DNA of 64,000 nt from a bacterium (lineage in GTDB: Bacteria > Bdellovibrionota > Bacteriovoracia > Bacteriovoracales > Bacteriovoracaceae). The notes below the pieces were generated by a model. That model made no database searches and had not been told where the DNA came from. It worked only from the letters and a program-made list of their open reading frames with translations. The position numbers and the translations under genes were made by a program. Within the stretch, counting starts at the first letter, position 1. Every line of letters begins with the position of its first letter. This document shows positions 5,547-56,244 of this stretch, in pieces. Where the stretch lies: positions 62,001 to 126,000 of the forward strand of contig JAUHVL010000007.1 in the NCBI GenBank assembly GCA_030425045.1, in the 5' to 3' direction.

Positions 5547-5547
5547 G

Positions 5548-6783: not shown

Positions 6784-6792
6784 GATATGTTT

Positions 6793-22961: not shown

Positions 22962-23326
22962 GGGGGTGCACTGGTTTCGACAGGGCACACTGACTTACTT
23001 ACGGGCACGTCTGGGTTGGTCGGAAGGCCCAGTAAAAATCCGACCAAAAAATAATTGCTGACTCTTATGAGCCAGTTGCTCTAGCTGCTTAATTGCAATC
23101 CTAGACATGAGGGGATGACATCCAAGAAACAGAAGTCATCACAGCTGGGGTAACTACAGTCTAACTAGTTACTGGAACTGCCGGGCCATTCCACAAAAAC
23201 TCACCGGGGTTTGCCTGTTTCACAAAATAGGATTGCCTTGTCTGCTGGCGAGAACCGCAGACTAAACGTGTAGGCCGAGTAAAGACGGTGTTCTGGACGC
23301 GAGTTCGATTCTCGCCACCTCCACCA
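22962..23326 (+). ncRNA. ssrA: tmRNA (transfer-messenger RNA)
   Basis: The 5' end GGGGGTGCACTGGTTTCGAC and the 3' end GTTCGATTCTCGCCACCTCC-ACCA form the tRNA-like domain. The acceptor stem pairs GGGGGTG with CACCTCC (one G-T), with discriminator A and an encoded CCA. The tag frame is at 23057-23092 and reads ADSYEPVALAA followed by TAA, with the usual ALAA end recognised by ClpXP. Its 3' end is a classical integration site, and the accessory region starts right behind it. Confidence 0.97.
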
Positions 23327-27502: not shown

Positions 27503-28521
27503 GGGTGATAGTATTAATAGCGGCACTAGTTGTGAACTTTGCTACAGGTAATGATGAAAGTCGTAACCCTATTAAAATATTGAGTGAAGCTTCAGAAGCA
27601 ATAGATACGAAAGTAATCGGTAGAAGTAAATTGGTAGGATTTGAAAATATTAATCCAGTAGATACTGCAACCGGAATTGAAGAAGAGAATGATGGGGGGA
27701 CTGATTTCTATAGCTATATTGGAATTAAATGTAATGAATCAAGGGACGAAAGTAGCTGTTTTTGTAGAATTGGTGATGTTCTAAAATCAAGATCAATGGA
27801 TATAAAGTATTTATTAGATCAAGTTAAGACGATTGAAGATGAGTGCTTTAGTGATGATAAAGATGAGAGTGGGGGCAGTTTTTCAGATAAGCTTATGGAA
27901 ATTAAACTAATTGGTGCAATGGTAAATGAAGATGATAGTTATGTCAGAGAGCTTGGTATTGACTTGTGTGGTGAAGGACTAATAGATTCCTGCCTCGTAA
28001 TTTCCAATTATGTTAATACGCACTTGTACTTGTTAGATGAGTTTAGGGGAATAGCTCATGATGCTTGCATATCTGGGAAGTCGAATTTATGTAATTTGAT
28101 AGGATTCTTGGAGCTCTCAGAGGAAAATAAAGAACAAGGAAAAAGGTTTTTCGAAATTGCTTGTAACATGAAAAATTATCATGGTTGTGCATTTGCTGGT
28201 GAGGAAAATATTGAAAACGGTGAGATTATTAAGGGAAGCGATCAAATTTTTAAAAGTTGCTCTGGTGGCTCAAAATTTGGATGTGAGATGCTTGATGGTA
28301 CATTATCTTTACACGTTAAATGTGATTTAAAAAAAGATGGTACTCGTAATATTGTTGAAAGGATAAAGGATTTGGGAATAAACATGGTGGAGATTGAGGG
28401 GGGAGAAAGTATCTTCGCTCTGCATTTTAATTCTTATGATAAAGTAAAAGAATTTCTTAACTCAAATTTCACAATCGAGGAAGATGTCTGTTTCGAAATA
28501 GTAGAGTTAGAGTATGAATAA
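27499..28521 (+). CDS. Exported Sel1-like repeat protein
   Basis: 340 residues with a signal peptide (ends near FATG). The middle (about residues 150-260) has Cys-paired Sel1-like repeats (DACISGKSNLCNLIGFLELS, FEIACNMKNYHGCAFAGEEN), as in the protein at 24675. Overlaps the previous and next genes by a few bases. Possibly a partner or immunity-type protein for the nuclease encoded next, but this is only positional. Confidence 0.72.
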   Translation: MRVIVLIAALVVNFATGNDESRNPIKILSEASEAIDTKVIGRSKLVGFENINPVDTATGIEEENDGGTDFYSYIGIKCNESRDESSCFCRIGDVLKSRSMDIKYLLDQVKTIEDECFSDDKDESGGSFSDKLMEIKLIGAMVNEDDSYVRELGIDLCGEGLIDSCLVISNYVNTHLYLLDEFRGIAHDACISGKSNLCNLIGFLELSEENKEQGKRFFEIACNMKNYHGCAFAGEENIENGEIIKGSDQIFKSCSGGSKFGCEMLDGTLSLHVKCDLKKDGTRNIVERIKDLGINMVEIEGGESIFALHFNSYDKVKEFLNSNFTIEEDVCFEIVELEYE

Positions 28522-29233
28522 TGTAATGGTGCTACATCTTGTATATTTAATTTTTTTTGGTAGTGATCTTTTTGCTCATCCAGGAAGAACTTCTAGAGAT
28601 GGATGTCATGTTTGTAAAACGAATTGTTTGAAGTATGGTGTTAGAGAGGGGGTAAGACATTCGCACGATGGAAAAACGTGCATTGGGAAGAAATCAGGTA
28701 GTTCTAAAGTTCCGACAACCGAGAAAAGATTAGAAAAAAAACGATACTCCCGAAAGTATTTCAAGCACTGGATAGACGTAGATGGCGATTGCCAAAATAC
28801 TAGAGATGAATTGCTTCTTTCGTGGAGTGAAGCTCCGGTGAAATTTCAGACAAAAAGAAGATGTAAGGTTGTTTCAGGAAGATGGAAAGATTTTTATTAT
28901 AACGAAGTGATTCTAGATGCTTCGTTGATTGACGTAGATCATATAGTTCCATTGAAAAATGCTTGGGAGTCTGGGGCAAACAAGTGGTCAGATAGGATAA
29001 GAATCGATTTTGCGAATGATTATGATAATTTAGTTGTTACAAATAGATCATATAACAGATCGAAGGGGTCGCAAACGCCTTTAACTTGGAGTCCTATTGA
29101 TCGTAGTTATTATTGTAAATATCTAAATAGATGGATAGAAATAAAGAAAAAATACGAGTTAGAAATTGATCCTAAAATTATTAAATTTTATAAATTAGCC
29201 AAATGCAGAACACAAATTAAGATTGATTTATAG
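28514..29233 (+). CDS. Secreted HNH (DUF1524/GmrSD-type) nuclease
   Basis: 239 residues with a signal peptide. After it come AHPGRTSRDGCHVC...RHSHDG (Cys/His-rich entry domain) and then the HNH core: VDHIVPLKNAWESGA (catalytic His, about residues 141-155) and FANDYDNLVVTNRSYNRSKG (Asn/His-equivalent part, about residues 168-187), ending in YYCKYLNRWIEIKKKYEL. This is the form of secreted DUF1524 nucleases. Expected to degrade DNA outside the cytoplasm. Last gene of the 26594-29233 operon. Confidence 0.88.
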   Translation: MNNVMVLHLVYLIFFGSDLFAHPGRTSRDGCHVCKTNCLKYGVREGVRHSHDGKTCIGKKSGSSKVPTTEKRLEKKRYSRKYFKHWIDVDGDCQNTRDELLLSWSEAPVKFQTKRRCKVVSGRWKDFYYNEVILDASLIDVDHIVPLKNAWESGANKWSDRIRIDFANDYDNLVVTNRSYNRSKGSQTPLTWSPIDRSYYCKYLNRWIEIKKKYELEIDPKIIKFYKLAKCRTQIKIDL

Positions 29234-29281: not shown

Positions 29282-29443
29282 ATGAATTTCTTGGGTAACA
29301 ATTATGCTTTCAAAAGGTATAGGGCCTATCACGGTTATGTCTATGGTGGGCTGGAAAAATTTGAAAATGATGCAGATTTAAATCAGAAAGCCGGGTATCC
29401 ATATATAAGGTTTTACAGAGAAATTAAACTTTTTATAACTTAG
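29282..29443 (+). CDS. Possible 53-residue protein or gene remnant
   Basis: A short frame (starts MNFLGNNYAFKRYRAYHGYV, rich in Tyr/aromatics) with no good ribosome site. It may be a remnant. The rest of 29234-29644 shows only imperfect repeats (TTTACTAA twice) and the leader of the next gene. Confidence 0.3.
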   Translation: MNFLGNNYAFKRYRAYHGYVYGGLEKFENDADLNQKAGYPYIRFYREIKLFIT

Positions 29444-30724: not shown

Positions 30725-32671
30725 ATGCCGAAAATATATAAGCTAGAAGATTTACAAGCGGTTGCAAAGAGTAGACAGGGTAAATGCATTTCTAAAAAAT
30801 ATTTAGGTGCGAGAGAGAAACATAGATGGGAGTGTGTTGAAGGGCATGTTTGGGAGGCAACACCAAGCCCGATAATTAACAAAGGTGTTTGGTGTCCTGA
30901 GTGTGCAAAAGAGATTCGAAGACAGAAAAAGAAAAAGTATAGTATCGAAGACATGAAAAAAATTGCCTTAGAAAGGGGAGGAAAATGTCTATCCAAAAAA
31001 ATGTTAAATACCCAAGAAAAACTATTTTGGATATGTTCTAAGGGCCATAAGTGGAAAACTTCATCAAGCAGTATTTTACGAGGCTCTTGGTGTAAGAAAT
31101 GCTTTTATGAAGGTGTTGCCGGCCAATATCATAAAAAAGATATAGAAGATGCACATCTTTTGGCAAAAGAAATGAAAGGGGTCTGTCTATCAAAAGAGTA
31201 TATAAACTCGAAAGGGTTGCTGCATTGGAAATGTCAAATGGGGCATACATGGGAAGCATCCTATGGGGCAATTTCATCGGGTCGTTGGTGCCCAGCATGC
31301 GCGAATCTAAAAAAGTCGAAAAAACAAATAAAATACACCATTCGAGACATGAACGATCTTGCATCTAATCGAGGAGGATGTTGTGTTTCTAAAAGATATA
31401 TTAACTCTAGAACAAAGTTAAGTTGGATGTGTTCAAATGGTCACACATGGGAGGCAACACCAGCAAATATTAAAACAGGTTATTGGTGTCCTTACTGTAA
31501 CGATTTAATTGGTGAAACACTTTGTCGAGTAATTCTGGAAAAAATATTTAAGAAGAATTTTATAAAAACTAAACCAACATGGTTAGTAAATAGTCGTTCA
31601 AATAGAATGGAACTAGATGGCTTCTGTGAAGAGTTGGGCTTGGCATTTGAGCACCATGGAAGACAGCATTATATAAAATCATATTATGCCAAGACCGATC
31701 GTGAACTAGAATTGCGAAAAAAAGAGGATAAGTTAAAAGAAAAAATATGCAAAAAGAATAATGTAATATTACTGATTATACCAGAGGTTGGTCATCTTAT
31801 TGAGATTGATTCACTATATGATTATATTGTAAATGCTCTGAAGGCTTTTGATGTAAAAATTCCCAAGCATGATAATTTTAAATATTCCAAGTTGGATGTA
31901 TATAAAAATGCTCAAATAATGGAAGCTCAAGGTGTTGCGGTTGAAAGAGGTGGAAAATTTATTTCTACTATCTATATGGGAAGTTCTCGAAAGCATGAAT
32001 GGGAATGTGGCGAAGGGCATAGATGGGAAGCCACTCCATCAAAAATTAAAATGGGACGTTGGTGTCCTAAGTGTGCTGGTAAAGCACCAATAAAGATAGA
32101 GGAAATTAAAGAAGTTGCCAGGCTGAAGGGCGGTGAATGCCTATCGAACTCTATAGTAAATATCAAGAGCAAACTGATTTGGAGATGTGGTAAGGGGCAT
32201 GAATGGAAAGCCTCAGCAAGTCCTATAATTTATAAAGATACTTGGTGTCCTGTTTGTAGTCGAGAGCGACAAGCTGAGCGTCAGCGTGGTTCTATTAAAG
32301 AAATGAAAAAAATTGCAAAAGCACATGGCGGTAAGTGCCTCTCGAAAGAATATGTTACAGCGAGAGTTAAGCTTAGTTGGCAATGTAAAGTTGGCCATAC
32401 TTGGAGCGCAACTCCAAGTGGAATTAAACAAGGAAAATGGTGTCCTAAATGTCGAGGTTTGGGGTTTTCTCAGAAAGAAATGCTGGGACAGATGCAAGAG
32501 TTAGCAAAAAAATATAGTGGAAAATGTTTGTCTAAAAAATATGTAAATAATATAACTCCTTTGAAGTGGACTTGTGAGAGTGGCCATGTTTGGAAGGCTA
32601 ACCCTAAGAATATAAAGAAAGGTTCATGGTGTCCGACATGTGCAAAAAATAAAGCAATAAAAAGAAGTTAG
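30725..32671 (+). CDS. Eight-zinc-ribbon protein with central PD-(D/E)XK/Vsr-like nuclease domain
   Basis: 648 residues. Eight copies of a module with pattern W-x-C-x3-H-x-W-x-A...W-C-P-x-C (for example WECVEGHVWEATPSPI...WCPEC) are arranged four before and four after a unique domain at about residues 258-385. That domain has RMELDGFCEELGLAFEHHGR-QHY and a later KEKICKKNNVILLIIPEVGH, the usual E-L-D...A-F-E-x-x-G-x-Q-H-Y signature of Vsr/very-short-patch-like and homing-type nucleases. Probably a DNA-binding endonuclease of mobile DNA. The 4+4 symmetry is unusual. Confidence 0.85.
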   Translation: MPKIYKLEDLQAVAKSRQGKCISKKYLGAREKHRWECVEGHVWEATPSPIINKGVWCPECAKEIRRQKKKKYSIEDMKKIALERGGKCLSKKMLNTQEKLFWICSKGHKWKTSSSSILRGSWCKKCFYEGVAGQYHKKDIEDAHLLAKEMKGVCLSKEYINSKGLLHWKCQMGHTWEASYGAISSGRWCPACANLKKSKKQIKYTIRDMNDLASNRGGCCVSKRYINSRTKLSWMCSNGHTWEATPANIKTGYWCPYCNDLIGETLCRVILEKIFKKNFIKTKPTWLVNSRSNRMELDGFCEELGLAFEHHGRQHYIKSYYAKTDRELELRKKEDKLKEKICKKNNVILLIIPEVGHLIEIDSLYDYIVNALKAFDVKIPKHDNFKYSKLDVYKNAQIMEAQGVAVERGGKFISTIYMGSSRKHEWECGEGHRWEATPSKIKMGRWCPKCAGKAPIKIEEIKEVARLKGGECLSNSIVNIKSKLIWRCGKGHEWKASASPIIYKDTWCPVCSRERQAERQRGSIKEMKKIAKAHGGKCLSKEYVTARVKLSWQCKVGHTWSATPSGIKQGKWCPKCRGLGFSQKEMLGQMQELAKKYSGKCLSKKYVNNITPLKWTCESGHVWKANPKNIKKGSWCPTCAKNKAIKRS

Positions 32672-32856: not shown

Positions 32857-34224
32857 TTAATTTGAATTAAGGTACCATGCAGGTTGTCTTTTTGTTGCTT
32901 TTCCTCCATTTTCTGCGAATTTGAAAAAGATGTTTCTCTTTTTTAATGAGTCAATAAATTTATCATTTTTTGGGCTTTTTAAAACCCAAAGACAGCCTCC
33001 TTTGTCACTCTTGTCAGTATAGCTAATGTCAAATGAATCAAGAGCTTTCTTTGCAGCTTCTATAATTGGCAACTGAGAACTTTTTTCTTTTTCCTCTACA
33101 AGCCATCGAACTACTTTTTCGTAAACATCTTTAACTTCGTTTGCACGATTTTCAATAGGATTCTCACTTATGTAATTTTGGTAGGCCATTTCTTGCATGA
33201 GCCTGATTGAGTCAGCGTTTAGATTCTCAAATGTAAAATGGTAGCGTTTCATAACCTCGGATAATATGGATGGATCAAACTCCACTTGTGCTGTATTACT
33301 CCCTTCGATTTTATTTTTTATATCTTTTACTTTAAGTTTAGAGTAAGTTTTATACTGGCTGTCGCTGATGTAATTTCTGTTTCGTAACTTTACGAGCATT
33401 GCTGAATAGCTCACGGCAAACTTGTCCGAAAGCTTATAGGCTTCTATTTCGGAAATTCCAGACTTAATAAAATTGCCAATTTCTATATCAAGAAATTCAT
33501 TTGGTATTAGAATTTCAGAAGCAAAGCTATCAGCGTCTTTTTCAATTGGTGAAACGTGGCGACCTAGCATTGAAACTGCACTTTTATTATTGGGGTAATG
33601 ACTTAAATAGAAATGTGCAATCTCATGGGCAAGACTAAATCGAATTCTATTGTCAGGTTGGTTGGAGTTTAGAAGGATACCAGCTCCGTTTTCATTATTT
33701 GGATGAATTAAAGCTCCTGATAAATTATTTAGAACTGAAAACTTCACGAAAATATTCATTCTTGAAGCGATATCAAATACATCAACTGGTGCTTTTGTAA
33801 TACCCATCTTCGTCAGTAGCTCTTGCGCGGCAAGTGTAATCACCTCAGTGCTTGATTTATCGGTGATTGTAGATTTAAAAAATTGTTTCTTTTTCTTGAG
33901 TAGTTTTAACTCTTCAAGAAAAAAATTAAGTTCCAGAATATCATTGTTATCCATTTCTTTATTGCTATTTGTGGCTCGCGTATTGAGGTCCGCATACAAT
34001 TCGAAATTTTTGGGAGAGGAGTTGAGCAATTCATCTGGTGTACAAAAAAATAGTTTGCATAAGTTTACAAGTTCGCTGACTTCTATACTTCTTTTACTAT
34101 CTTGGGATTCAAGAGCGGACATTGCACTTTTTGATATTCCCAAAAAGGAAGCAACCGAAGTTTGACTCAACCGAAGCCATTTTCTTCGTTCAGTAATTTT
34201 GGATTTTACAATCTCCATGTCCAT
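32857..34224 (-). CDS. XRE HTH + ImmA/IrrE metallopeptidase regulator
   Basis: 455 residues from the ATG at 34224 (AAGGAG upstream); the frame is open to 34272. Domains: XRE HTH (LSQTSVASFLGISKSAMSAL, about residues 18-37); ImmA/IrrE peptidase with FSLAHEIAHFYLSHY (HExxH zinc site, about residues 205-219); a KFAVSYSAMLVKLRNRN segment; and a C-terminal module with GGCLWVLKSP...GGKATKRQPAWY. Such fused proteins cleave or replace repressors and control ICE or phage genes. It is divergent from the ubiquitin-like operon, across a dyad operator. The 32672-32856 gap has only a start-less short frame. Confidence 0.88.
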   Translation of the reverse strand: MDMEIVKSKITERRKWLRLSQTSVASFLGISKSAMSALESQDSKRSIEVSELVNLCKLFFCTPDELLNSSPKNFELYADLNTRATNSNKEMDNNDILELNFFLEELKLLKKKKQFFKSTITDKSSTEVITLAAQELLTKMGITKAPVDVFDIASRMNIFVKFSVLNNLSGALIHPNNENGAGILLNSNQPDNRIRFSLAHEIAHFYLSHYPNNKSAVSMLGRHVSPIEKDADSFASEILIPNEFLDIEIGNFIKSGISEIEAYKLSDKFAVSYSAMLVKLRNRNYISDSQYKTYSKLKVKDIKNKIEGSNTAQVEFDPSILSEVMKRYHFTFENLNADSIRLMQEMAYQNYISENPIENRANEVKDVYEKVVRWLVEEKEKSSQLPIIEAAKKALDSFDISYTDKSDKGGCLWVLKSPKNDKFIDSLKKRNIFFKFAENGGKATKRQPAWYLNSN

Positions 34225-34330
34225 TGTGTGTCTACTCCTTAGATAATTAGGCCGACAAGGAATGTCGGTCATAATGTAATTTTAGCAACTTCCAATAAAA
34301 TAGTCAAAATTAATGCATTTTTTATATTTT

Positions 34331-34353
34331 TTATTCCAGAAAATCAGGAATAA
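34331..34353. promoter_or_regulatory. Dyad TTATTCC-N9-GGAATAA, probable operator
   Basis: Perfect 7-bp arms in the divergent intergenic region 34225-34634, about 107 bases upstream of the XRE-ImmA gene. A good place for this regulator to act on both sides. The rest of the gap holds a possible structured leader (CCCTCT...AGAGGG hairpin near 34470) before the plus-strand operon; no convincing gene. Confidence 0.55.
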
Positions 34354-34634
34354 AAAGTTGTTTTACTTTTGTTTTTATGTTTATAATTTTATATTAGCTT
34401 CTGAGAGTATGGAAAGTGATTGATTTTTAAAGCTGGATATACTGTGGAAGTAAAAGAGAAAATAAACCCTCTCCGCAAGAGAAGAGGGCTTTGCCTCGAA
34501 ACAAATTGCTCTGAAGGTCTAATTGAGAACTATATCTTCACAAAGAGCACGAGTTTCGTCAAGGCCATTTTTCAACTCAGGAAGAGGTTACAAACTAACC
34601 CGACCACAAAAGGTCCCTAAGCCGAGGAGGAAAA

Positions 34635-35297
34635 ATGGCTTGTAAGAAATTTGAAGTATCTGTTAACTCAACCAAGGTTTTATTTGAAGATCGTTTTGTA
34701 ACGGCGGCACAAATCATTTCGGCAAGTGGTCAAGATTATGCAGTCATTGAGCAGGTTTTTTCTGGTGGTGAAAGAAAAATCATTCTAAAGGATGAGCAAG
34801 TCGACTTGGGTGCTCCCGGGGTAGAAAGATTTGAAGCTTACTCTGAATGTGATGTTCATTATTTTAATTTGAATAATGAGTTGCGCGCTATCGGAGAGAG
34901 GAATGCCAATGTTCAAGAAATTATTGAGCGCGGTGGAAAATTTCCAGCAAAAGATTTTGCACTTGTTGAAACGATAAGTGATATCGAGAGCATCCTGATT
35001 GACTCAAAAGAAAAAGTAACTTTTGAAAAAGGTTGCAAGAGAAACTTTTTCACTTTTCCAAAAGACCAAGTCTATACCTTCAAAGTAGATAAAGGAAAAT
35101 TTGTGACAGAAAAGACTTCTCTTACTGGGGAAGAAATTTTACTCACTGCTGGTCTCACACCTGTTAATGAGTATGAATTGATTCAGAAGTTCTGTGGCAA
35201 AAAAAGAGAGAGGATTGAACTTGGGGACGTCGTTGACCTAACGGTACCAGGAATTGAAAAATTCGTTTCCATTCCACTGGATCAGCGTGAGGGTTAG
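34635..35297 (+). CDS. Multi-ubiquitin-like protein (three beta-grasp domains)
   Basis: 220 residues that divide into three related beta-grasp units: about 4-70 (KFEVSVNSTKVLFED...GAPGVERFEAY), 72-150 (weaker), and 151-220 (YTFKVDKGKFVTEKTSLTGE...VDLTVPGIEKFVSI). The T-G-E-E-I-L and V-D-L-x-x-P-G-x-E-K-F patterns are those of the prokaryotic Multi_ubiq family. The chain ends in Arg-Glu-Gly, a single terminal glycine, so no pro-peptide has to be removed. GAGGAGG ribosome site at 34625. First gene of a four-gene operon with E2, E1-JAB and DUF6527, so it is probably the conjugated modifier. Confidence 0.9.
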   Translation: MACKKFEVSVNSTKVLFEDRFVTAAQIISASGQDYAVIEQVFSGGERKIILKDEQVDLGAPGVERFEAYSECDVHYFNLNNELRAIGERNANVQEIIERGGKFPAKDFALVETISDIESILIDSKEKVTFEKGCKRNFFTFPKDQVYTFKVDKGKFVTEKTSLTGEEILLTAGLTPVNEYELIQKFCGKKRERIELGDVVDLTVPGIEKFVSIPLDQREG

Positions 35298-35299
35298 CA

Positions 35300-35695
35300 A
35301 TGAGAAGAGAGTTTGAATTACCGGAGTCCGACAAGGCCTTCTTAGAAGGCTTGGGCCATAAATGGGAAACCGTAAGAGAAGGTAATGTTAACCGCCTAGT
35401 GTTAAGGGAGTATCCAGTCTGTGAAGGTTATAATCACAGATTGGTTGACCTATATTTTAGGCTGCTTCCCACTTATCCTGATACTCAGATTGATATGGTG
35501 TACTTCAACCCTCATCTCGTTCGTGTTGATGGTAAACAGATTAAAGCTCTGGCAAATGAAGCTTTCGATGGTATCAATTGGCAGCGGTGGTCACGCCATC
35601 GTACGCCCAAAAACCCTTGGCGTCCTGGAATTGATTGCGTTGAAACTCAACTTGCACTTGTTGATCATTGGTTAAGGAGGGAGTTCAAGCAATGA
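35300..35695 (+). CDS. Prokaryotic E2 family E (ubiquitin-conjugating-like) protein
   Basis: 131 residues with the Prok-E2_E pattern: LPTYPDTQIDMVYFNPHLVR (about residues 56-75), then NWQRWSRHRTPKNPWRPGID (93-112) and ETQLALVDHWLRREF. Cys residues are Cys41 (EYPVCEGY) and Cys113 (RPGIDCVETQL); Cys113 sits where the WRPG-D motif meets the last helix and is a candidate active site, but family E often keeps Asp-rich rather than Cys residues here, so this is uncertain. It starts 2 bases after the modifier gene and its stop overlaps the E1 start (ATGA). Confidence 0.9.
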   Translation: MRREFELPESDKAFLEGLGHKWETVREGNVNRLVLREYPVCEGYNHRLVDLYFRLLPTYPDTQIDMVYFNPHLVRVDGKQIKALANEAFDGINWQRWSRHRTPKNPWRPGIDCVETQLALVDHWLRREFKQ

Positions 35696-37122
35696 AAAAT
35701 AAAATCGCTAAAATTTCTATTCCAGAGATTCATTTCAATCATATAAAAGAGCATTTGGTTGACCACGATGGGAAAGAAGCTCTCTGCTTTGCTCTCTGTG
35801 GAATAGCAAAGCGGCCTCGTGGAACCTATCTGTTTATTAAGAGAGTAATTAAAGTTCCATATGAAGTTTGTAGACGATCAGAGAACGGTATTACTTGGTC
35901 TTCCCGTGTCTTACTGAATGTTGTTAAAGCTTCACTACAAGAAGACTTAGCAATTCTGAAGATCCATTCACACCCGGCAGGTGCAAGGTACTTCTCAGCA
36001 GTCGATGACAAGTCTGACAGCGAACTTTTTCCGAGGTTATATGATTTAACTTCAAATGAGTTCATCCATGGAAGTGTCGTAATAACAAAGGATTTGGAAA
36101 TTTTAGGCAGGACTGTTGATGAAAATGGCAGTTTCTCCATGATTCCTAAAATTATAGTTGCTGGCGATGACATTTCAATTCATTTTGGAGAGGATTGTTC
36201 CAAAGACATTCCGCCTAGTAAAATGAGAATATCTCAATTGTTTGGTGAAGGGACCACCGCAATATTATCAAGATTAAAGGTTGGAGTTGTGGGGGCATCT
36301 GGTACAGGAAGTCCATCCATTACCCAGCTTGAGAGAAATGGAGTTGGAGAAATAGTCTCAATTGACCCCAAAGTTTCAAGAGATGAGAATCTTAATCGAA
36401 TAAGTCAGCTTAAAAAAAGTGATGTTGCTGCTGGCAGGTTTAAGGTTGAGGTAATAGCAGAAGATATTATTCGAAATGGTCTTGGCACTAAGGTGACTCC
36501 TTTAGCAAGTAATATTCTCGACGAGGAGTCGATTCTAGAGCTATCAACATGCGATATTATAGTAGGCTGTATGGACTCAGCATTGGGTCGCCACGTTGCC
36601 AACAAGATTTCTACCTTCTATGCGATTCCCCTAATTGACATTGGAGTGCAGCTTAAAGCCGACGGAAAAGGAGGTATCCGCTCTGCGTGGGGGAGCTATC
36701 ATTACATAAAGCCAGGTGGGGAAAGTTTATTGAGCAAAAAAGTATATAGTTTGGAAGATGTTGAAGCTGAAATTATTAAAATGACTGACCCTGAACAATA
36801 TGTAGATTTAGAGGCAAGAAAATACATTAAAGGAGCTGAGGAAAGCTCACCCGCAGTGATCTCCTTTAATATGAGAATATCAGCCGATGCCATTATTGAT
36901 CTTCTAGCGAGAATTCATCCATTTAGGGATGAGGCAAATTCGGCTTTCAACACATATAGATACAATTTTTGTGAAGGTGAAGTTTACAAGGGCTCCGAAG
37001 GAGAAAGTTGTCCAGTCTTTTTGAAAGGGCTATCCAATGGAGACAAATCTCCTCTACTTGGACTAACTGGCCTAGTACAAAAGAAACAAAGGGATAAAAA
37101 GAATAATGATGCGAATATTTAA
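35692..37122 (+). CDS. JAB peptidase-E1 (ThiF) fusion of the ubiquitin-like system
   Basis: 476 residues from the ATG at 35692 (AAGGAGG at 35674-35680). N-terminal JAB/JAMM domain: Glu29 in KEALCFALCG, then IHSHPAGARYFSAVDDKSD with His92, His94, Ser102 and Asp105 in exact H-x-H-x7-S-x2-D spacing. C-terminal ThiF/E1 domain from about residue 195: VGVVGASGTGSPS (nucleotide loop), SRDENLNR (Arg finger region) and IIVGCMDSALGRHVAN (Cys293/Asp295). It would activate the modifier with ATP and also trim or remove it. Overlap of 17 bases with the next gene. Confidence 0.93.
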   Translation: MKNKIAKISIPEIHFNHIKEHLVDHDGKEALCFALCGIAKRPRGTYLFIKRVIKVPYEVCRRSENGITWSSRVLLNVVKASLQEDLAILKIHSHPAGARYFSAVDDKSDSELFPRLYDLTSNEFIHGSVVITKDLEILGRTVDENGSFSMIPKIIVAGDDISIHFGEDCSKDIPPSKMRISQLFGEGTTAILSRLKVGVVGASGTGSPSITQLERNGVGEIVSIDPKVSRDENLNRISQLKKSDVAAGRFKVEVIAEDIIRNGLGTKVTPLASNILDEESILELSTCDIIVGCMDSALGRHVANKISTFYAIPLIDIGVQLKADGKGGIRSAWGSYHYIKPGGESLLSKKVYSLEDVEAEIIKMTDPEQYVDLEARKYIKGAEESSPAVISFNMRISADAIIDLLARIHPFRDEANSAFNTYRYNFCEGEVYKGSEGESCPVFLKGLSNGDKSPLLGLTGLVQKKQRDKKNNDANI

Positions 37123-37438
37123 GAAATTTTTGTCGTGGGGAAGAAGACGATTTTTTCGAGATTCATACTTTGCATTTTGGTCTGAGGAAATCCCTGATGA
37201 TATCCAACAAAATATTGTTTATATTGAAGGCAGCATTGATTCTGCCGACATTGCTGCTTTTGTTTGTCCGTGTGGGTGTAATGAAAAGATAAGCTTATCT
37301 CTACTAGAGTGTTCTAAGTCAAATTGGTCAGTATCAACTGATTTTTTCGGAAGAGTAAGTCTCAGTCCTTCTATTTGGAGAACTAAAGGTTGTAAGAGTC
37401 ATTTTTTCTTAAGGAAAGGAAAGATAATCTGGACCTGA
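37106..37438 (+). CDS. DUF6527-type zinc-binding protein of the ubiquitin-like operon
   Basis: 110 residues, basic N-terminus, then AFVCPCGCNEKISLSLL (Cys cluster, about residues 52-68), GRVSLSPSIWRTKGCKSHFF (91 onward) and a last beta strand KGKIIW. The CPCGC + S-L-x-P-S + C-x-S-H-F pattern matches DUF6527, which usually accompanies multi-ubiquitin/E2/E1 genes. Likely binds zinc through Cys and His. Role unknown; an E3-like or target-recognition role is only a guess. Last gene of the 34635-37438 operon. Confidence 0.85.
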   Translation: MMRIFKKFLSWGRRRFFRDSYFAFWSEEIPDDIQQNIVYIEGSIDSADIAAFVCPCGCNEKISLSLLECSKSNWSVSTDFFGRVSLSPSIWRTKGCKSHFFLRKGKIIWT

Positions 37439-41352: not shown

Positions 41353-41619
41353 ATGCAAAAAGCAGTTTTTCCGAGCTTTTTAAGCTCGAAGGCAAAAATA
41401 TATCTAAATTTCACGAGGATTGATTTTTTGATTTTGGGGGTTGGTTATTTAATACTTTCAAAGTTAAGTTCTAATACTCTTGTTTCGTTTGGAATAAATG
41501 CCATTATTCTTATTGTCTTCAAATTCTTAACCTCAAAAATGCCCAGAGGGTTTTTGAGATTTCTAAGAGAGCCTAAAAATATTGACTGGGCATATCAGAT
41601 GGAGGGGAGAAATGAGTAA
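41353..41619 (+). CDS. VirB3/TraL-like membrane protein
   Basis: 88 residues with two membrane helices (FLILGVGYLILSKLSS and VSFGINAIILIVFKFL) and a basic C-terminal tail (MPRGFLRFLREPKN). It lies immediately before, and overlaps by 8 bases, the VirB4-type ATPase gene, the usual virB3-virB4 order. Confidence 0.7.
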   Translation: MQKAVFPSFLSSKAKIYLNFTRIDFLILGVGYLILSKLSSNTLVSFGINAIILIVFKFLTSKMPRGFLRFLREPKNIDWAYQMEGRNE

Positions 41620-45927: not shown

Positions 45928-46410
45928 ATGATTTATTATATTTTCAAGTCTCAAATATTTTCACTTTTTCTTTCAGTGAATCATTTTAGTGCTGTGACAT
46001 TTCAATCTAAGGTCTTTGATTATATAGGTGGAAAGCAAGGGGAGTTTAAGGTTTACGAATTAAACAAGAAAAAAACTCTGGTTTTTGAAACAAAGGAAAA
46101 GAATTTTAAGAATAATTTCTTGGTTTTTCTAAAAGATGAAAAATACCATTTTAATCTCATATATGATGAGTCCCATTCAAACAAAGACATTGAGATTAAA
46201 GAAGCTGAAAAATGCAGTTACTTTTCATTATTGCATGAAACAAGTAGTTACAAGCTTTTTGAATGCCCGAAGTCTCTTTATATTAAAAACAAGAAGAGCA
46301 AGCCTCTAAGGGCCAATGAGATCACTATTATTGATGACAATTATCTCTCTAAAGGGCCACCTCTTTATATTGATGGGAAGCTTATATATTACCAAGGAAG
46401 AGTTCTATGA
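45928..46410 (+). CDS. VirB9/TraK-position protein
   Basis: 160 residues with a hydrophobic start and beta-rich body (KVYELNKKKTLVFETKEKNF, NNFLVFLKDEKYHFNLIYDE). The F-x-V-F/Y-x-F pattern resembles the N-terminal VirB9/TrbG domain, and the position between VirB8- and VirB10-like genes agrees. It is short for VirB9, so C-terminal parts are absent. Confidence 0.6.
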   Translation: MIYYIFKSQIFSLFLSVNHFSAVTFQSKVFDYIGGKQGEFKVYELNKKKTLVFETKEKNFKNNFLVFLKDEKYHFNLIYDESHSNKDIEIKEAEKCSYFSLLHETSSYKLFECPKSLYIKNKKSKPLRANEITIIDDNYLSKGPPLYIDGKLIYYQGRVL

Positions 46411-47213
46411 AGCTATTGATCTTGGTAATTTTATGCAATTTTGTAAATGCTGGTTTTTCTGAGTTAAGCGAAAAGGATCGTTTTAGTTATGATAAACAAG
46501 AAGTAACTGTTAAAAGGCCTTCGAAAAATCATTCATCAATTCAAAAGAAAAAAACTGCTGATATAAACGTTAAAAAACTTGCTGATGAAATTCTGGAAAA
46601 AGATAAAGAGATTGAGGCTTTACTGAAGAAATCTCAAAAGACGCTAATTTTGAAGTCATCAAAAAATAAAGTGCTCGCACTTAGTCGGATTAAAGGAACC
46701 CTCTTAAATTCTGTAATAGCCATGAATGTAAAGCCTTCAAAGTTCATTGTTAAGATAACAGATGAACATGAAGATTTATCAGGAGGTGAGCTTAAGTGCT
46801 TCGGCCATAGTTTTCAAAAAAGGGTTATTTCAAAGTGTAATTTACTGGTATTGAATGGAGAGGAATATGAAGTAAGTATCGAGCTTTGGGATTTAGATGG
46901 CGCAGAGGGAATTATTTCAGATTACTTTTATTCTGGTGAAGAGAAAGCTTTTGTTACCTCATCATTTGCCTCATTCCTACAAGGAGTACTTGAAACTTCT
47001 AAAGAAAGGATAAGCTCACCTTACGGACAAATCTCTGACAATAGCTCAAGAAATATGATGCTTGGGGGATTGTCTGAGATCGCAGCAAATGCGAATAAAA
47101 AAATAGCAAGTTCGGGAGAAAGCGAACTTTCAATATCATTTATAAATTCAGGTAAGGAAGTGATCATTTTCTTTGATCAAACTCTTAATCTAAATAAGGA
47201 TTCTAAAAAATGA
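46407..47213 (+). CDS. VirB10/TraB/TrbI-like protein
   Basis: 268 residues. After an N-terminal hydrophobic segment and a Lys-rich coiled linker, the C-terminal domain shows the VirB10 pattern: VLALSRIKGTLLNSVIAMNV (about residues 91-110), CNLLVLNGEEYEVSIELWDL with D-G-A-E-G, a Ser/Asn-rich stretch, and a final SGKEVIIFFDQTLNL. Likely spans the periplasm. Overlaps its neighbours by 4 bases. Confidence 0.78.
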   Translation: MKLLILVILCNFVNAGFSELSEKDRFSYDKQEVTVKRPSKNHSSIQKKKTADINVKKLADEILEKDKEIEALLKKSQKTLILKSSKNKVLALSRIKGTLLNSVIAMNVKPSKFIVKITDEHEDLSGGELKCFGHSFQKRVISKCNLLVLNGEEYEVSIELWDLDGAEGIISDYFYSGEEKAFVTSSFASFLQGVLETSKERISSPYGQISDNSSRNMMLGGLSEIAANANKKIASSGESELSISFINSGKEVIIFFDQTLNLNKDSKK

Positions 47214-47724: not shown

Positions 47725-49227
47725 ATGAGTTCAAAGAAAAAAGACCAGGATGCTGGTCTAGGGGACTTTATTACCCCAATTGTCGACTTATTAAGCATTT
47801 TGTTGATTGAAGGAATTAAATTTGGTGGGAAAGGACTAGTTTTCATCTTCAATCGATTTATTTTTAACAATGAAAAGGAGCATGAATTGAAAAAGATAGA
47901 AAGAAAGCAACTCGATTGCAAAAAAATTACTTTGGATGACGATGCGTTAGGTTTTAGTGTGAATAAGAAAAAGAACTTCAAATACTCAAGTTTGGAGAAA
48001 AAGAAGCATACCATGATTGTAGGTGCTTCTGGTTTTGGAAAAACAGTTCTTTTGGATAATCTTATTTATGACGATTTAAAAAATGACAAGCCAGTCATTT
48101 TTATTGATCCAAAGGGTGATCACAAGTCACTAAGTCATTTTATTAATTTATGTAGGTTAACAGGAAGAGATTTTAATATCTTTTCTGAAAGCTACTCTGG
48201 AGCAGGGGCCATTTCCCTTAATCTGACAAAAGATGGAAGTGCAACGCATATAGCAGACCGTATTCATTATTCTTTTGATTGGTCAGAAGAACATTACGAA
48301 ACTCTTTGCTATCGAGCACTAAAATCAGCTATCTCAAGTTTGAAAGCAGAGGACCAAAGAGTTGATTTTGAAACTATACTCTTAAAAGTTAAAGAGCTAT
48401 GTGACCCAAAAAGCAAAGACAAGGAATTTTCAAGAAAAGATGTAGAGGGCCTTATCGCCAGACTTGAAAATATTGTTCAGTCCGACTTTGGAAAGAAACT
48501 TTCTGGAGAGGGACAATCAATTAGTGACATCTGGAATAATGGAAAATGTATTTATATTGGTATGCCAGTTCTTGGTTATCCCAAAATCGCGAGGGCCCTT
48601 GGTAAGATCGTTTTAGGTGACCTCTCTTATGCTGTTTATAATAAGTATTGTGATTTATCAGTAGAGTTTGAAAAAAAGCTAGTGCCTGTTGGTGTCTATA
48701 TAGACGAGCTATCTGCCGTCATTACCAATGAGTTCATAGAGCTATTAAATAAGTGTCGAGGTGTAAAAATGGAGCTTACTTTTGCTTTTCAATCACCAAG
48801 TGACATTAATAAGGTTGACCCTGAGCTTTGTGAGCAGATACTAGAAAATAGCTCGAACTGGTTTATTCTCAAACAAAGAATGGAAAGGGGAGCAAATCTT
48901 TTTTCGTCTGCCATTGGTACTTCTGAGGGAAAGAAAAATACAATTAGAGTAAAGGATGGTGAAGAGCAAGACCAAGGTAGCCAACGAGCGGTGGAGGAGC
49001 TTCTTGTTCATGCTAATCTTATTAAAAATTTAAACCCAGGTCAGTGCATTTTACTTAGGCATGGACCCACAAGAATTGATCTACTTAATATTAAATATAT
49101 TAAGCCCGAAATTGTTTCTCATAATATTGACCTACTTGAAAGTGAAGGAGTGCTTGAGAGCTTACCTATTGTCTCGACTAATAAAGTGATCGAAGAGGAG
49201 ATTATTTCAAAGGGAGGAGCTTTGTGA
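47725..49227 (+). CDS. VirD4/TraD-type coupling ATPase
   Basis: 500 residues: a short membrane-near N-terminus, Walker A GASGFGKT (about residues 100-107), VIFIDPKGDHKSLSHF, Walker B VGVYIDELSAVITNEF (about 322-337), and a TFAFQSPSDINKVDP sensor. It shows TraD-family style (LCYRALKSAI, ILKQRMERGANLF). Brings the DNA substrate to the T4SS. GTGA overlap with the next gene. Confidence 0.9.
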   Translation: MSSKKKDQDAGLGDFITPIVDLLSILLIEGIKFGGKGLVFIFNRFIFNNEKEHELKKIERKQLDCKKITLDDDALGFSVNKKKNFKYSSLEKKKHTMIVGASGFGKTVLLDNLIYDDLKNDKPVIFIDPKGDHKSLSHFINLCRLTGRDFNIFSESYSGAGAISLNLTKDGSATHIADRIHYSFDWSEEHYETLCYRALKSAISSLKAEDQRVDFETILLKVKELCDPKSKDKEFSRKDVEGLIARLENIVQSDFGKKLSGEGQSISDIWNNGKCIYIGMPVLGYPKIARALGKIVLGDLSYAVYNKYCDLSVEFEKKLVPVGVYIDELSAVITNEFIELLNKCRGVKMELTFAFQSPSDINKVDPELCEQILENSSNWFILKQRMERGANLFSSAIGTSEGKKNTIRVKDGEEQDQGSQRAVEELLVHANLIKNLNPGQCILLRHGPTRIDLLNIKYIKPEIVSHNIDLLESEGVLESLPIVSTNKVIEEEIISKGGAL

Positions 49228-50869: not shown

Positions 50870-51145
50870 ATGCATAAAAATAGAACTTGTGTGGATTACA
50901 ATTTGAGAACTACACAGTATAGTGGGCGTGTCGAAGATTCTTATGAAAATTCGATGATGCTCTTTAACAATTTAGAATGGATGACGACTAACGAAGCTGC
51001 GGCTTATTTAAGAAAGTCTACTAATGCAATTCGGACGGCCGTATGTCGTGGACATATTAAGGCCCGAAAATTCAGAAGAAGACTTTATTTTAAACGGAGT
51101 GAACTTGATCGCCTTATTGAAACCTCAACAACCATTGGAGGTTAA
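50870..51145 (+). CDS. xis: Excisionase/MerR-type HTH protein
   Basis: 91 residues whose second half is a helix-turn-helix of the excisionase/DNA-binding family: MTTNEAAAYLRKSTNAIRTA, then GHIKARKFRRRLYFKRSELD. Directly upstream of the integrase gene, which starts 1 base after its stop region, so it likely steers excision. Confidence 0.82.
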   Translation: MHKNRTCVDYNLRTTQYSGRVEDSYENSMMLFNNLEWMTTNEAAAYLRKSTNAIRTAVCRGHIKARKFRRRLYFKRSELDRLIETSTTIGG

Positions 51146-51146
51146 T

Positions 51147-52280
51147 ATGGCAATTAAGTGTTATGAAAAAAATGGACAAAAACTTTATCAGGTCTATGTA
51201 AATGCGAGAAGCAAGGTAGATCCAAAGTTGAGAGTTCAAAAAACTGTTTCCGATTTAAAATCCCTTTCGTTAGCAAGACGAGAAGAGAATAGAATTCACC
51301 AAGAGCTTGGTAAAAAGCTACTTGAACTTGAAGGACGATGTGATACCTGGGAGTCTGTGATTTATAGGTGGGCAGAGGAAGCTAAATCAGGTTTTCTCGG
51401 AACCTATAATCCGGCTACTATTATGGATCATGTTGCGAGTTTGAGAAATTGGACTCGAAGTTGGCTTAAAATCCCTGCATCTGAACTTGGTAAAGCACAC
51501 GGCCGTGATCTTGTTAAAAAGATGACTAATGAGGAAAAGTCTATCAGCTTCATTAAAAAGGTAAAGAACACTGTTAATGTGATCTACAACTTTGGAATTG
51601 AAGAAGGACTTATTAAAGGTGTACATCAGTCTCCCGTATATGGAATTAAACTTCATCAAAAACAGGAGAAAGTGCCTGATATCCTCTCACTTGAGGAAAT
51701 CAAAAAGCTTTTACATGAAGCTAAAAGGCAAAAACATCCTTGGTATCCAATTTGGGCAACAGCACTTTTAACAGGAATGCGTAACGGTGAACTTTATGCC
51801 CTTGAGTGGGATGATTTAGATTTTGAAAATCAGATTGTTCGTGTTTCAAAGTCTTTCAATAAAAGAACAAATGAGATTAAAAGTACAAAAGCAGGATATT
51901 GGAGAAATGTCCCAATGTCGCCTGAACTTAATAACCTTTTTGTTTCTTTAAAATCATCAAACAAAGGGAAGTTTGTTTTACCAAGATTTCGAGATTGGCA
52001 AAGGGGTGATCAATCAAAAATTTTAAAGATGTTTTTGGTTGGTGTTGGCCTTCCTAAAATCAAGTTCCATGCTTTACGAGCTTGTTTTGCTACACAGCTT
52101 TTAGCTAAAGGCACACCGCCAGCAATTGTGATGAAAATTTGTGGTTGGAGAGATTTAAAGACCATGGAATTTTACATTCGTGTGGCCGGTGTGGACGAGA
52201 AGGGAGCTACCGATTGTCTTAATATCTTGCCCTCTGAGGCTGAGGTAATGGAGAACGTAGTGAGCCTTTTTCAGCATTGA
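51147..52280 (+). CDS. int: Tyrosine integrase of ICE1
   Basis: 377 residues from the ATG at 51147 (GGAGG at 51137-51141). A SAM-like N-terminal domain, then the catalytic domain with Arg212 (TGMRNGELYALEW), His308/Arg311 (FHALRACFATQLL), Trp334 at the second His place (CGWRDLK) and the nucleophile Tyr343 (EFYIRVAG). Should integrate and excise ICE1. The attachment site was not identified. Terminator follows. Confidence 0.93.
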   Translation: MAIKCYEKNGQKLYQVYVNARSKVDPKLRVQKTVSDLKSLSLARREENRIHQELGKKLLELEGRCDTWESVIYRWAEEAKSGFLGTYNPATIMDHVASLRNWTRSWLKIPASELGKAHGRDLVKKMTNEEKSISFIKKVKNTVNVIYNFGIEEGLIKGVHQSPVYGIKLHQKQEKVPDILSLEEIKKLLHEAKRQKHPWYPIWATALLTGMRNGELYALEWDDLDFENQIVRVSKSFNKRTNEIKSTKAGYWRNVPMSPELNNLFVSLKSSNKGKFVLPRFRDWQRGDQSKILKMFLVGVGLPKIKFHALRACFATQLLAKGTPPAIVMKICGWRDLKTMEFYIRVAGVDEKGATDCLNILPSEAEVMENVVSLFQH

Positions 52281-54486: not shown

Positions 54487-56244
54487 TTAAGTTATTGGTT
54501 TGACTGGCCGTCGGTTGTTTCCACCAACTGCAATGCTGGACGAACCCTCGGTCACAAGGGTTTCGATCTCAGCATTTTTTTTTGCCTTTTTTTCAGACCT
54601 TCCTCCACCAGACGCATTAGCTACGCCTAGTGTCCTTCCAGCTTTAAGAAAAGGGAGTATGACTCCTTTCTCATCACCAGTGTTTCTCTGGTCTTTATTC
54701 TTATTCTCCTGAGTCCAAACATTAATTTGAATCAGATTGTCAGGGCTAATATTGATGTTCTTTATGACGCTCTTGGCAACTAGACGCTTCTTTTGAAGCT
54801 TAAATTTTCTAAATCTCTCAGAGCTAAGCTGTTTAAGATTTTCGATAACAAAGTCTGGGTCAATTGTTTGAGGTTCTTCATTGGATGCCTTGATTTCAAG
54901 CTCAGCAATTTGTTCCTGAATATTTTGAAGCTCTTTCTCTGAGTCTTTTAACCTCTTAACAATGGCATCAACACTACCGGCCATATCTGAACTAGCAATA
55001 ACATCAATGAGTTTGTTAATCTGCCCCTGTATTAGTTTTTCTTCTCTCTTTTTCGCTTTTAATTCCCCTTTATATTCAGGAGCTGAGTTTGTAGAGAGTT
55101 CCTTTAAGATGCTAATGAAATCATCTTTAAGGGCTTGATTGTTTAAAATACTAAATAGATGCTTCTTAATTCTTTGCTCTAATTCAATTGCAGGGTATCG
55201 CTTAACCTTGCATTCTGATTTTTTGCTGTGGCCATAATAGTAATGCTTGTTTGTTTTTCCTGTGGCTGATTGGCCAAATAAGGGCTGTCCACATTCATCA
55301 CAGGTAAGTAGTCCAGAGAGGATAAAGTCATGTGTTGCAGTATGCTTTACAGCTTTGTTTGCCTCTAATATCTTTGAAGCTTTTTTGAAATCAGCCTCAT
55401 TAATAATTTTTTCCCAAGAGGCATCAACGAAGTGGTATTTTTCTGTAGTTTTCAATGTAGATTGATCTAGTTCTTTGTTTTCCTTATTTACTTCTCTTTT
55501 TCCCATGTAAAACGGATTCGTAAGAAGTCTATAAACTGTGGAATGAGTAAAAGCTTTTCCTCCGTAGTTGTTTCCAGTTTTAGAAGTCCATGCTTTATTT
55601 TTGATATTCTTACTCTTTAAGTATTTTAGAACCTCAGAGATTTGTCCTGATTCTAAGAATACTTGGTACATCTTTTTTACAATTCTGGCTTCATCTTTGT
55701 TAATGACTAAAGAACCTGATTGAGTAGGGTGCTTATCAAACCCTAGAATAGGTGTCCCACCATTTAGAAGGCCTCTTAATGCTCTTGCGTGGAAATTGTT
55801 TTTGATACGTTCTGCCGTAAGCTCTCTTTCAAATTGCGCTAGTGCCATGATGATTGTCATAAAGACTTTTCCAGCAGGGCTAGTTGTATCGAAGTCATAT
55901 TGTAAGCAGATAAAGTCTGCTCCTAAATCTTCAAGTTCTTGAACGAAATTTAAAAAGTCCGTGACTGAACGGCTAAGCCTTGATAGTTCGGTAACGATAA
56001 CAGTATCAATTTTATTTCTTCTTACATCATCAAGGAGTTTTTGGTACTGAGGCCTATCGGTATTTTTTCCAGAATATGCTTCATCTTTATAAATACCAAC
56101 AAGTTTTCCCCACTTATTATTCTCGTATCTATTCTTCTCTTCAATTTTTAGTTTTAGTCGTTGTATTTGAGACTTAATTGAGCCTTCTTTATTCTTGGCT
56201 TGCTCATCTGTACTTACACGACAATAAATTCCAACTTTTCTCAT
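54487..56244 (-). CDS. Large serine recombinase of ICE2
   Basis: 585 residues: resolvase catalytic domain with nucleophile Ser11 (IYCRVSTDEQ), DTVIVTELSRLSRS (Arg cluster) and IIMALAQFERELTAERI; recombinase domain (LLNGGTPILGF, YRLLTNPFYMGKR); zinc beta-ribbon (LLTCDECGQPLFGQ...ECKVKRYPA); coiled coil near residues 380-450. Typical size of large serine integrases. C-terminal tail is basic and Ser/Gly-rich. Integrates/excises the minus-strand element. Confidence 0.95.
   Translation of the reverse strand: MRKVGIYCRVSTDEQAKNKEGSIKSQIQRLKLKIEEKNRYENNKWGKLVGIYKDEAYSGKNTDRPQYQKLLDDVRRNKIDTVIVTELSRLSRSVTDFLNFVQELEDLGADFICLQYDFDTTSPAGKVFMTIIMALAQFERELTAERIKNNFHARALRGLLNGGTPILGFDKHPTQSGSLVINKDEARIVKKMYQVFLESGQISEVLKYLKSKNIKNKAWTSKTGNNYGGKAFTHSTVYRLLTNPFYMGKREVNKENKELDQSTLKTTEKYHFVDASWEKIINEADFKKASKILEANKAVKHTATHDFILSGLLTCDECGQPLFGQSATGKTNKHYYYGHSKKSECKVKRYPAIELEQRIKKHLFSILNNQALKDDFISILKELSTNSAPEYKGELKAKKREEKLIQGQINKLIDVIASSDMAGSVDAIVKRLKDSEKELQNIQEQIAELEIKASNEEPQTIDPDFVIENLKQLSSERFRKFKLQKKRLVAKSVIKNINISPDNLIQINVWTQENKNKDQRNTGDEKGVILPFLKAGRTLGVANASGGGRSEKKAKKNAEIETLVTEGSSSIAVGGNNRRPVKPIT

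What the first reader, a model, noticed from the sequence alone, without database searches (positions are those of the whole stretch)
34635..37438. Complete ubiquitin-like conjugation operon carried by an integrative conjugative element
Four tightly coupled genes (gaps +2, overlaps 4 and 17 bases) encode a tri-ubiquitin-like modifier ending in Arg-Glu-Gly, an E2 of family E, a JAB-E1 fusion with intact H-x-H-x7-S-x2-D and nucleotide loop, and a DUF6527 zinc protein. Such multi-ubiquitin/E2/E1-JAB sets were predicted by Iyer, Burroughs and Aravind; related systems (BilABCD, CBASS Cap2/Cap3) have tested antiviral roles. Carriage on an ICE suggests a mobile defence. What the modifier attaches to, and what DUF6527 does, is open.
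Basis: partly seen in the sequence, partly recalled or inferred. Interest (0 to 1): 0.85.

Follow-up and report, generated by a model that had tools for sequence, protein, structure and literature searches.

The report
Known Bub ubiquitin-like operon, mobile element
A genuine four-gene bacterial system for attaching a small ubiquitin-like tag to proteins sits on a conjugative-type element in a Halobacteriovoraceae-related bacterium; it belongs to the already described 'Bub' family, whose biological purpose is still unproven.

Summary
In detail: four coupled genes at the stated coordinates encode a tri-β-grasp Ubl (AlphaFold pLDDT 94), a Prok-E2_E protein, a JAB–E1 fusion and DUF6527. It is not new in kind. 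The E1–JAB matches Citrobacter BubCD over its full length (E=6e-61) and the E2 matches BubB (E=2e-26); both have solved structures. It is a Bub (bacterial ubiquitination-like) operon, a family counted at 544 operons in the literature. I found 428 relatives in species genomes and 143 plasmids with one. Gene order A–B–CD–DUF6527 held in every locus long enough to judge (80/81).

What I add: (1) a divergent HTH–M78 regulator (single-chain CapH–CapP type) lies next door, sharing a palindrome with its closest relative, so induction by DNA damage is likely; (2) neither E1 nor E2 has a canonical catalytic cysteine: Cys293 lies in the ThiF adenylation motif, and the only invariant nucleophile in the E2 is Ser98 (103/103); (3) BubA ends exactly at the mature Gly that 44/80 relatives fuse to BubB; (4) DUF6527 also occurs in a second, DUF6791–ThiF Ubl operon type; (5) the carrier is a T4SS element next to ssrA, with no recognised relaxase. 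An anti-phage role is unproven for Bub.

The parts
34635..35297 (+). bubA: tri-beta-grasp ubiquitin-like modifier, 220 aa, ending in LDQREG at the mature Gly220
   Evidence: Pfam PF14452 E 3.4e-22; AlphaFold pLDDT 94.3, three beta-grasp units; Foldseek best 9d5a Citrobacter multi-ubiquitin E 2.5e-15, BubA(155-229) 9ea8 TM 0.86 of target; Gly220 and LDQxEG motif conserved
35300..35695 (+). bubB: E2-like protein, Prok-E2_E, no conserved Cys; invariant Q95-x-W97-S98-R99-H100 and W107
   Evidence: PF14462 E 1.3e-36; Citrobacter BubB 9eae E 2.4e-26; conservation over 103 sequences
35692..37122 (+). bubCD: JAB (JAMM) peptidase fused to ThiF-type E1, 476 aa
   Evidence: Citrobacter BubCD 9ea4 E 6.1e-61 over residues 12-461; JAMM E29/H92/H94/S102/D105 and G201-x-S-G-T-G, N233-x-N235-R236 conserved
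37106..37438 (+). DUF6527 protein, 110 aa, C54-P-C-x-C58 ... C96-x2-H99 likely zinc site, all-beta domain
   Evidence: PF20137 E 1.3e-21; invariant C54, C58, C96, H99 in 66 sequences; AlphaFold pLDDT 86.6; no PDB fold or sequence match
32857..34272 (-). divergent HTH_3 + M78 (HExxH) metallopeptidase, single-chain CapH-CapP-type regulator, 471 aa
   Evidence: Pfam M78 5.6e-14, HTH_3 5.5e-6; PADLOC capP 8e-27; same position in relatives; M78 in 32 of the 116 proteins scanned (the window's own regulator plus 115 upstream proteins of relatives)
34328..34356 (.). palindrome TTTTTATTCCAGA-AAA-TCAGGAATAAAAA in the regulator-bubA gap; candidate operator
   Evidence: 13-nt arms, 12/13 pairs; the only TTCCTGANNNTCAGGAA-like site (up to 2 mismatches) in 64 kb; core shared with GAAAATCCTGAATATCAGGAATTTC at the same place in relative L037
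41582..43531 (+). TraC/VirB4-type conjugation ATPase of the carrier element
   Evidence: PF19044 2.8e-19; TIGR02746 TraC 3e-32, below its cut-off
46407..47213 (+). VirB10/TrbI-like protein of the carrier element
   Evidence: PF03743 1.3e-4, below cut-off
47725..49227 (+). TraD/VirD4-type coupling protein of the carrier element
   Evidence: PF12696 5.6e-9; TIGR03743 SXT_TraD 4e-41, below its cut-off
51024..52280 (+). tyrosine integrase of the carrier element
   Evidence: PF00589 2.5e-22; 86% identical copy in relative G048 in the same arrangement
22962..23326 (+). tmRNA (ssrA) gene at the left side of the element
   Evidence: ARAGORN, Rfam RF00023; synteny with the ssrA-linked element in G048 and G127

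Best explanation
This is a Bub (bacterial ubiquitination-like) operon. The E1 half of BubCD adenylates the free C-terminal Gly220 of BubA (shown: adenylation fold and residues; inferred: activity). BubA then passes through the cysteine-less E2 BubB, most likely as an ester on invariant Ser98 rather than a thioester, to an unknown target (inferred). The JAB half removes or edits the conjugates (catalytic residues shown, activity inferred). Because this bubA gene stops exactly at the mature glycine, it should need no maturation cleavage, unlike the 44 of 80 relatives in which BubA is fused to BubB. DUF6527 is a fixed fourth component with a probable Cys3His zinc site, present with two different E1 types, so probably an E1/Ubl-binding adaptor or ligase-like factor (inferred, weak). 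The divergent HTH-M78 protein represses the operon at a palindrome and, by analogy with CapH+CapP, cleaves itself when single-stranded DNA appears, switching the system on during DNA damage or phage infection (inferred). It travels as variable cargo of an ssrA-linked conjugative-type element.
For: Full-length match to Citrobacter BubCD and BubB; BubA fold matches solved multi-Ub proteins and BubA(155-229). Same four genes in the same order in 80 of 81 loci, the other cut at a contig end, and on named plasmids. JAMM and adenylation residues invariant in 102 sequences. E2 invariants without Cys in 103 sequences. BubA C-terminal motif and fused/separate counts. HTH-M78 regulator and shared palindrome. 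PMC13373217: 219/544 Bub operons carry CapW or CapH+CapP; CapP is activated by ssDNA and cleaves CapH. Element synteny.
Against: The two primary Bub papers (Gong 2025; Ye 2026) are not in the library, so membership rests on PDB molecule names, sequence and fold matches and on PMC13373217. BubB Ser98 as nucleophile rests on conservation alone; it could be structural. No phage-protection evidence exists for Bub. The regulator is one chain here, whereas published CapH and CapP are two proteins. The shared palindrome rests on two loci. No relaxase and no att repeat were found for the element.
Confidence: 0.82

Rival explanations
1. A classical thioester cascade (E1 Cys293, an E2 cysteine) conjugating the modifier to lysines.
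For: E1 Cys293 is invariant, 102/102; ThiF fold.
Against: Cys293 lies in the GC[M/V]D motif, which corresponds to the non-catalytic DCTDN motif of MoeB/ThiF (motif recalled from general knowledge; no residue-level MoeB alignment was printed here). No Cys is conserved downstream in the crossover-loop region; where distant homologues have C-x2-C, the window has S-x2-S. BubB has no conserved cysteine.
Confidence: 0.08
2. BubA acts mainly as a reversible scaffold or filament that senses stress, and enzyme-driven conjugation only caps or edits it.
For: The best structural neighbours include entries deposited as 'multi-ubiquitin protein filament', 9d59 and 9d5b; the window BubA has the same three-domain architecture.
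Against: E1, E2 and JAB are retained intact and the conjugatable Gly is strictly kept; most relatives have a BubA of only about 100-140 aa, room for one beta-grasp domain.
Confidence: 0.12
3. The same conjugation system, but serving a DNA-damage or element-maintenance stress response rather than anti-phage defence (a rival on purpose, not on chemistry).
For: [quoted passage not shown] Carriage on plasmids and conjugative elements and a DNA-damage type regulator fit either view.
Against: Neighbouring cargo includes nuclease-like genes (GmrSD_C; phage HNH-type), and the same regulator type sits on proven immune systems.
Confidence: 0.45
4. A sulfur-carrier or cofactor biosynthesis pathway (ThiS/MoaD-like) rather than protein conjugation.
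For: ThiF-family E1 and a beta-grasp protein ending in Gly.
Against: Dedicated E2, JAB fusion, three beta-grasp domains, closest relatives are Bub proteins; no thiamin or molybdopterin genes recognised around it.
Confidence: 0.02

Closest known systems
Bub operon of Citrobacter (BubA, BubB, BubCD; PDB 9ea4/9ea5/9ea8/9eae/9eav; Ye et al. 2026)
   Same: Same proteins, same domain order in the JAB-E1 fusion, same E2 family, three-domain BubA, Gly at the mature C-terminus
   Different: About 32% identity to BubCD of enterobacterial plasmids; in the enterobacterial operons examined BubA and BubB are one ORF, here they are separate with BubA ending at the Gly; regulator genes there are a winged-HTH protein and its partner, here a single-chain HTH-M78
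Bub operon of Halobacteriovoraceae MAG SAT79 (L037, same contig as L018)
   Same: Closest relative found: BubCD 48% identical, divergent HTH-M78 protein 46% identical over the part present, BubA of the same length, shared palindrome
   Different: BubA fused to BubB
Neotabrizicola shimadae plasmid operon (L025)
   Same: Separate BubA ending in TEG, BubB, BubCD, DUF6527, divergent single-gene XRE regulator
   Different: Short BubA (119 aa); alphaproteobacterial; 41% identity
BilABCD (bacterial ISG15-like)
   Same: Ubl/E2/E1/JAB logic
   Different: Best hits are Bub; a Bil-named structure is only a weak BubA match (8u38). Bil has published anti-phage activity, Bub does not
CBASS Cap2/Cap3 and 6A-MBL
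   Same: E1 and JAB chemistry
   Different: Only weak partial matches in the E1 core; no CD-NTase or MBL recognised here
DUF6791-ThiF + DUF6527 operons, with or without Multi_ubiq (L148, L149)
   Same: DUF6527 next to an E1 and, in L148, a multi-ubiquitin protein; CapH/CapP-type genes adjacent
   Different: No Prok-E2_E, no JAB; different E1 N-terminal domain

Membership tests
Bub operon | Multi-ubiquitin/beta-grasp BubA with C-terminal Gly | tested here: met
Bub operon | BubB-type E2 (Prok-E2_E) | tested here: met
   PF14462 1.3e-36; 9eae BubB 2.4e-26
Bub operon | BubCD: JAB fused to E1, intact JAMM and adenylation residues | tested here: met
   9ea4 E 6e-61; conservation
Bub operon | Operon order A-B-CD with DUF6527 downstream (as found in relatives here; the primary papers could not be read) | tested here: met
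   Window and 80 of 81 loci, the remaining one cut at a contig end
Bub operon | Biochemical conjugation of BubA to targets | not testable with these tools
   Needs purified proteins or mass spectrometry
CapH+CapP-type DNA-damage regulator | HTH repressor plus M78 metallopeptidase with HExxH, adjacent to an immune-type operon | tested here: met
   HEIAH present; but fused in one chain
CapH+CapP-type DNA-damage regulator | Two separate proteins, CapP cleaving CapH on ssDNA | tested here: not met
   One 471-aa chain here; single-ORF matches of similar size also at L023, L038 and L065. It may work like CapHP by self-cleavage; the ssDNA response is not testable here
BilABCD | Bil-family E1/E2/JAB sequences | tested here: not met
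   Best matches are Bub; no Bil E1 or E2 chain reached threshold
Integrative conjugative element | Integrase, T4SS ATPase, coupling protein | tested here: met
   synteny
Integrative conjugative element | Relaxase and att repeats | tested here: inconclusive
   No relaxase recognised by Pfam or NCBIfam; no repeat of the tmRNA 3' end
Anti-phage defence system | Demonstrated protection | not testable with these tools
   Literature says not demonstrated for Bub

The most novel reading that the evidence does not exclude
DUF6527 is a general Ubl-pathway component, for example a zinc-dependent adaptor or ligase for cysteine-free, ester-based Ubl transfer, shared by two otherwise different bacterial systems (Bub and the DUF6791-ThiF type). 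The window's operon would be a streamlined form in which BubA is born mature, so the JAB domain works only as a deconjugase.
Probability: 0.2. Interest if true: 0.6.

Novelty: new member of a known kind. Interest (0 to 1): 0.38.

Why it matters
It shows a Bub pathway in a Halobacteriovoraceae-related lineage, on an ssrA-linked conjugative-type element, under a single-chain HTH–M78 regulator. The comparison turns two open questions into direct tests: whether BubB Ser98 replaces the E2 cysteine, and what DUF6527, present in all 81 loci examined and in a second operon type, does. A BubA that ends at its mature glycine offers a way to separate conjugation from JAB-dependent maturation in one natural system.

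Tried and rejected
Search for the operon in phage and viral collections: one partial match in phage records, none with the window protein in IMG/VR, one locus (L117) with the alignment; so it is mainly a plasmid, ICE and chromosomal system. Fold search of the DUF6527 model in the PDB: no match with E below 0.84 and no usable TM-score; profile search also empty. tmRNA 3'-end duplication as att site: none. An att repeat inside the integrase 3' end: no DNA-level repeat. PF14461 (Prok-E2_B) in this genome: none, an uninformative search because the control rang nowhere. Profile search of BubB against all PDB chains: only Citrobacter BubB, so a canonical E2 could not be aligned to place the cysteine position exactly. 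Promoter-like sites around the operon are no more frequent than in shuffles. The two primary Bub papers are not held.
Full report
Observation. Pfam names them Multi_ubiq, Prok-E2_E, Prok-JAB+ThiF and DUF6527. AlphaFold on an alignment of relatives gives three complete β-grasp units for the 220-aa protein at mean pLDDT 94.3, so 'tri-ubiquitin-like' is right. Foldseek's top hits are the solved bacterial multi-ubiquitin proteins, with Citrobacter BubA(155-229) among them.

Identity. By sequence the JAB–E1 protein matches Citrobacter BubCD over residues 12-461 (E 6e-61) and the E2 matches Citrobacter BubB (E 2e-26). The PDB holds BubCD alone and with BubA and BubB (9ea4, 9ea5, 9ea8, 9eae, 9eav). 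The operon is therefore a Bub operon. PMC13373217 (EMBO J 2026) counts 544 Bub operons, credits their definition to Gong et al. 2025 and Ye et al. 2026, and states that Bub has not been demonstrated to protect against phage. The two primary papers are not in the library. From memory, unverified here, the Ye paper describes ester-type intermediates; I rely only on the alignments below.

Spread. An alignment-based scan of one genome per species found 428 relatives, of which the best 80 were kept, in Pseudomonadota, Bacteroidota, Planctomycetota, Acidobacteria, Bacillota, Cyanobacteria and others. Plasmids hold 143 records with a match, 62 of them conjugative, including IncHI2-type enterobacterial plasmids. 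In a sample of 369 genomes of the window's phylum only 12 (9 over the curated cut-off) have the E2 family, 4 of them in the window's own family: a patchy pattern. The nearest relative, L037, is a MAG labelled Halobacteriovoraceae; its 13,499-base contig matches G025:C10, which the search tool places in the window genome's own family.

Architecture. Order BubA-BubB-BubCD-DUF6527 is kept in 80 of the 81 loci; the last, L114, starts inside BubCD at a contig end. DUF6527 is directly downstream of BubCD in all 81. BubA is fused to BubB in 44 and separate in 36 of the 80 loci that could be judged. In the fused forms a motif such as LDQTEG or VNNG precedes the linker, and the deposited Citrobacter BubA(155-229) construct ends at this point. 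By my count, 24 of the 36 separate genes stop exactly at the Gly and 12 carry a short tail. The window's gene stops at the Gly (REG). Thus this BubA needs no cleavage before activation, leaving deconjugation as the likely JAB job (inference).

Active sites. In 102 BubCD sequences (a few are the same locus fetched twice, e.g. L018 and L037) the JAMM residues E29, H92, H94, S102, D105 and the E1 residues G201, S203, G204, T205, G206, D225, N233, N235, R236, K251, D295 and R300 are kept in 97-100%. Cys293 is invariant but sits in GC[M/V]D, the equivalent of DCTDN in MoeB/ThiF (recalled motif), which is part of the adenylate site. The later region where MoeB-type E1s carry C-x2-C and the crossover cysteine reads PGGESLLS in the window; more distant relatives still show C-L-x-C there. 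In 103 BubB sequences no cysteine is conserved; invariant are L15, M66, Q95, W97, S98, R99, H100 and W107. Ser98 is the only invariant residue with a hydroxyl or thiol that could serve as a nucleophile. A serine-ester relay is the most economical reading, marked as inference.

DUF6527. Invariant C54, C58, C96 and H99 (C56 in more than 90%) indicate a zinc site. The model is a confident small β-domain (pLDDT 86.6) without a PDB counterpart. In the phylum sample, DUF6527 occurs over its cut-off in nine genomes. In two of them it sits in a different operon: a DUF6791–ThiF E1 without JAB or Prok-E2_E, with a Multi_ubiq protein in one case (L148) and CapH/CapP-type genes in both. So DUF6527 follows the E1/Ubl, not the E2_E or JAB.

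Regulation. Divergent from bubA, 362 bp away, is a 471-aa HTH_3–M78 protein with HExxH, matching PADLOC CapP at 8e-27. An M78 domain was found in 32 of the 116 proteins scanned, the window's own regulator plus 115 from the genes upstream of Bub operons in relatives. PMC13373217 reports that 219 of 544 Bub operons have CapW or CapH+CapP and that CapP is activated by ssDNA and cleaves CapH. Between regulator and bubA is a palindrome (34328-34356) whose core recurs at the same place in L037; a two-mismatch search finds no other copy in 64 kb, although shuffled sequence gives about 0.5 such hits. It is the best operator candidate, on two loci only.

Carrier. The operon lies between a tmRNA gene (22962-23326) and a conjugation module: TraC/VirB4 at 41582, TrbI-like at 46407, TraD-type at 47725, tyrosine integrase at 51024. 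In relative G048 the same order, tmRNA, decayed integrase fragment, conjugation genes and an 86% identical integrase, recurs, and G048 is not among the genomes with the E2, so Bub is variable cargo of an ssrA-linked element. No relaxase and no att duplication were found, so present-day mobility is inferred.

Verdict. Interest is moderate because of the precise tests on Ser98, DUF6527 and naturally mature BubA.

Noticed in passing
window 29289-29438: Decayed tyrosine-integrase C-terminal fragment (40% identical to residues 354-403 of the 51024 integrase, three stops), also present at the matching place in G048; suggests repeated insertion of elements near ssrA.
   Followed up: partly
window 30725-32671: 648-aa protein with eight DUF4379 treble-clef repeats and a strong match to phage HNH-type endonuclease families (PHROG 559, 681; E to 2e-79); possible homing or defence nuclease next to the Bub operon.
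   Followed up: partly
window 28514-29233: GmrSD_C/HNH-type endonuclease domain protein, possible further defence cargo with two unknown genes before it.
   Followed up: partly
window 34464-34491: GC-rich hairpin AAACCCTCT...AGAGGGCTT in a long leader before bubA; L037 also has a long leader with hairpin-like repeats. Role unknown.
   Followed up: no
window 32857-33070 (C-terminal part of the HTH-M78 protein): The last roughly 70 residues weakly resemble the ZorC tail (PADLOC E 0.0015), an extra domain beyond HTH and M78.
   Followed up: no
L148:3863-5907, L149:7307-8894: A second Ubl-like operon type in the phylum: DUF6791-ThiF E1 plus DUF6527, with Multi_ubiq in L148, near CapH/CapP-type genes.
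   Followed up: partly
L037-L117 upstream genes: Besides M78/HTH regulators, 12 of 116 proteins near Bub operons match Sigma70_r2, and 6 each match subtilase S8 and AAA, suggesting further regulator or partner modules.
   Followed up: no
L108:2-1673 and 5265-7712: Two divergent Bub-type operons within about 8 kb in Chryseosolibacter histidini.
   Followed up: no
L117: A Bub operon with a long BubA fused to BubB on an IMG/VR contig of 44 kb, so at least one copy was called viral or proviral.
   Followed up: no
window 54487-56244: Large serine recombinase (Resolvase + Recombinase + zinc ribbon) on the minus strand just beyond the tyrosine integrase, perhaps a second element.
   Followed up: no
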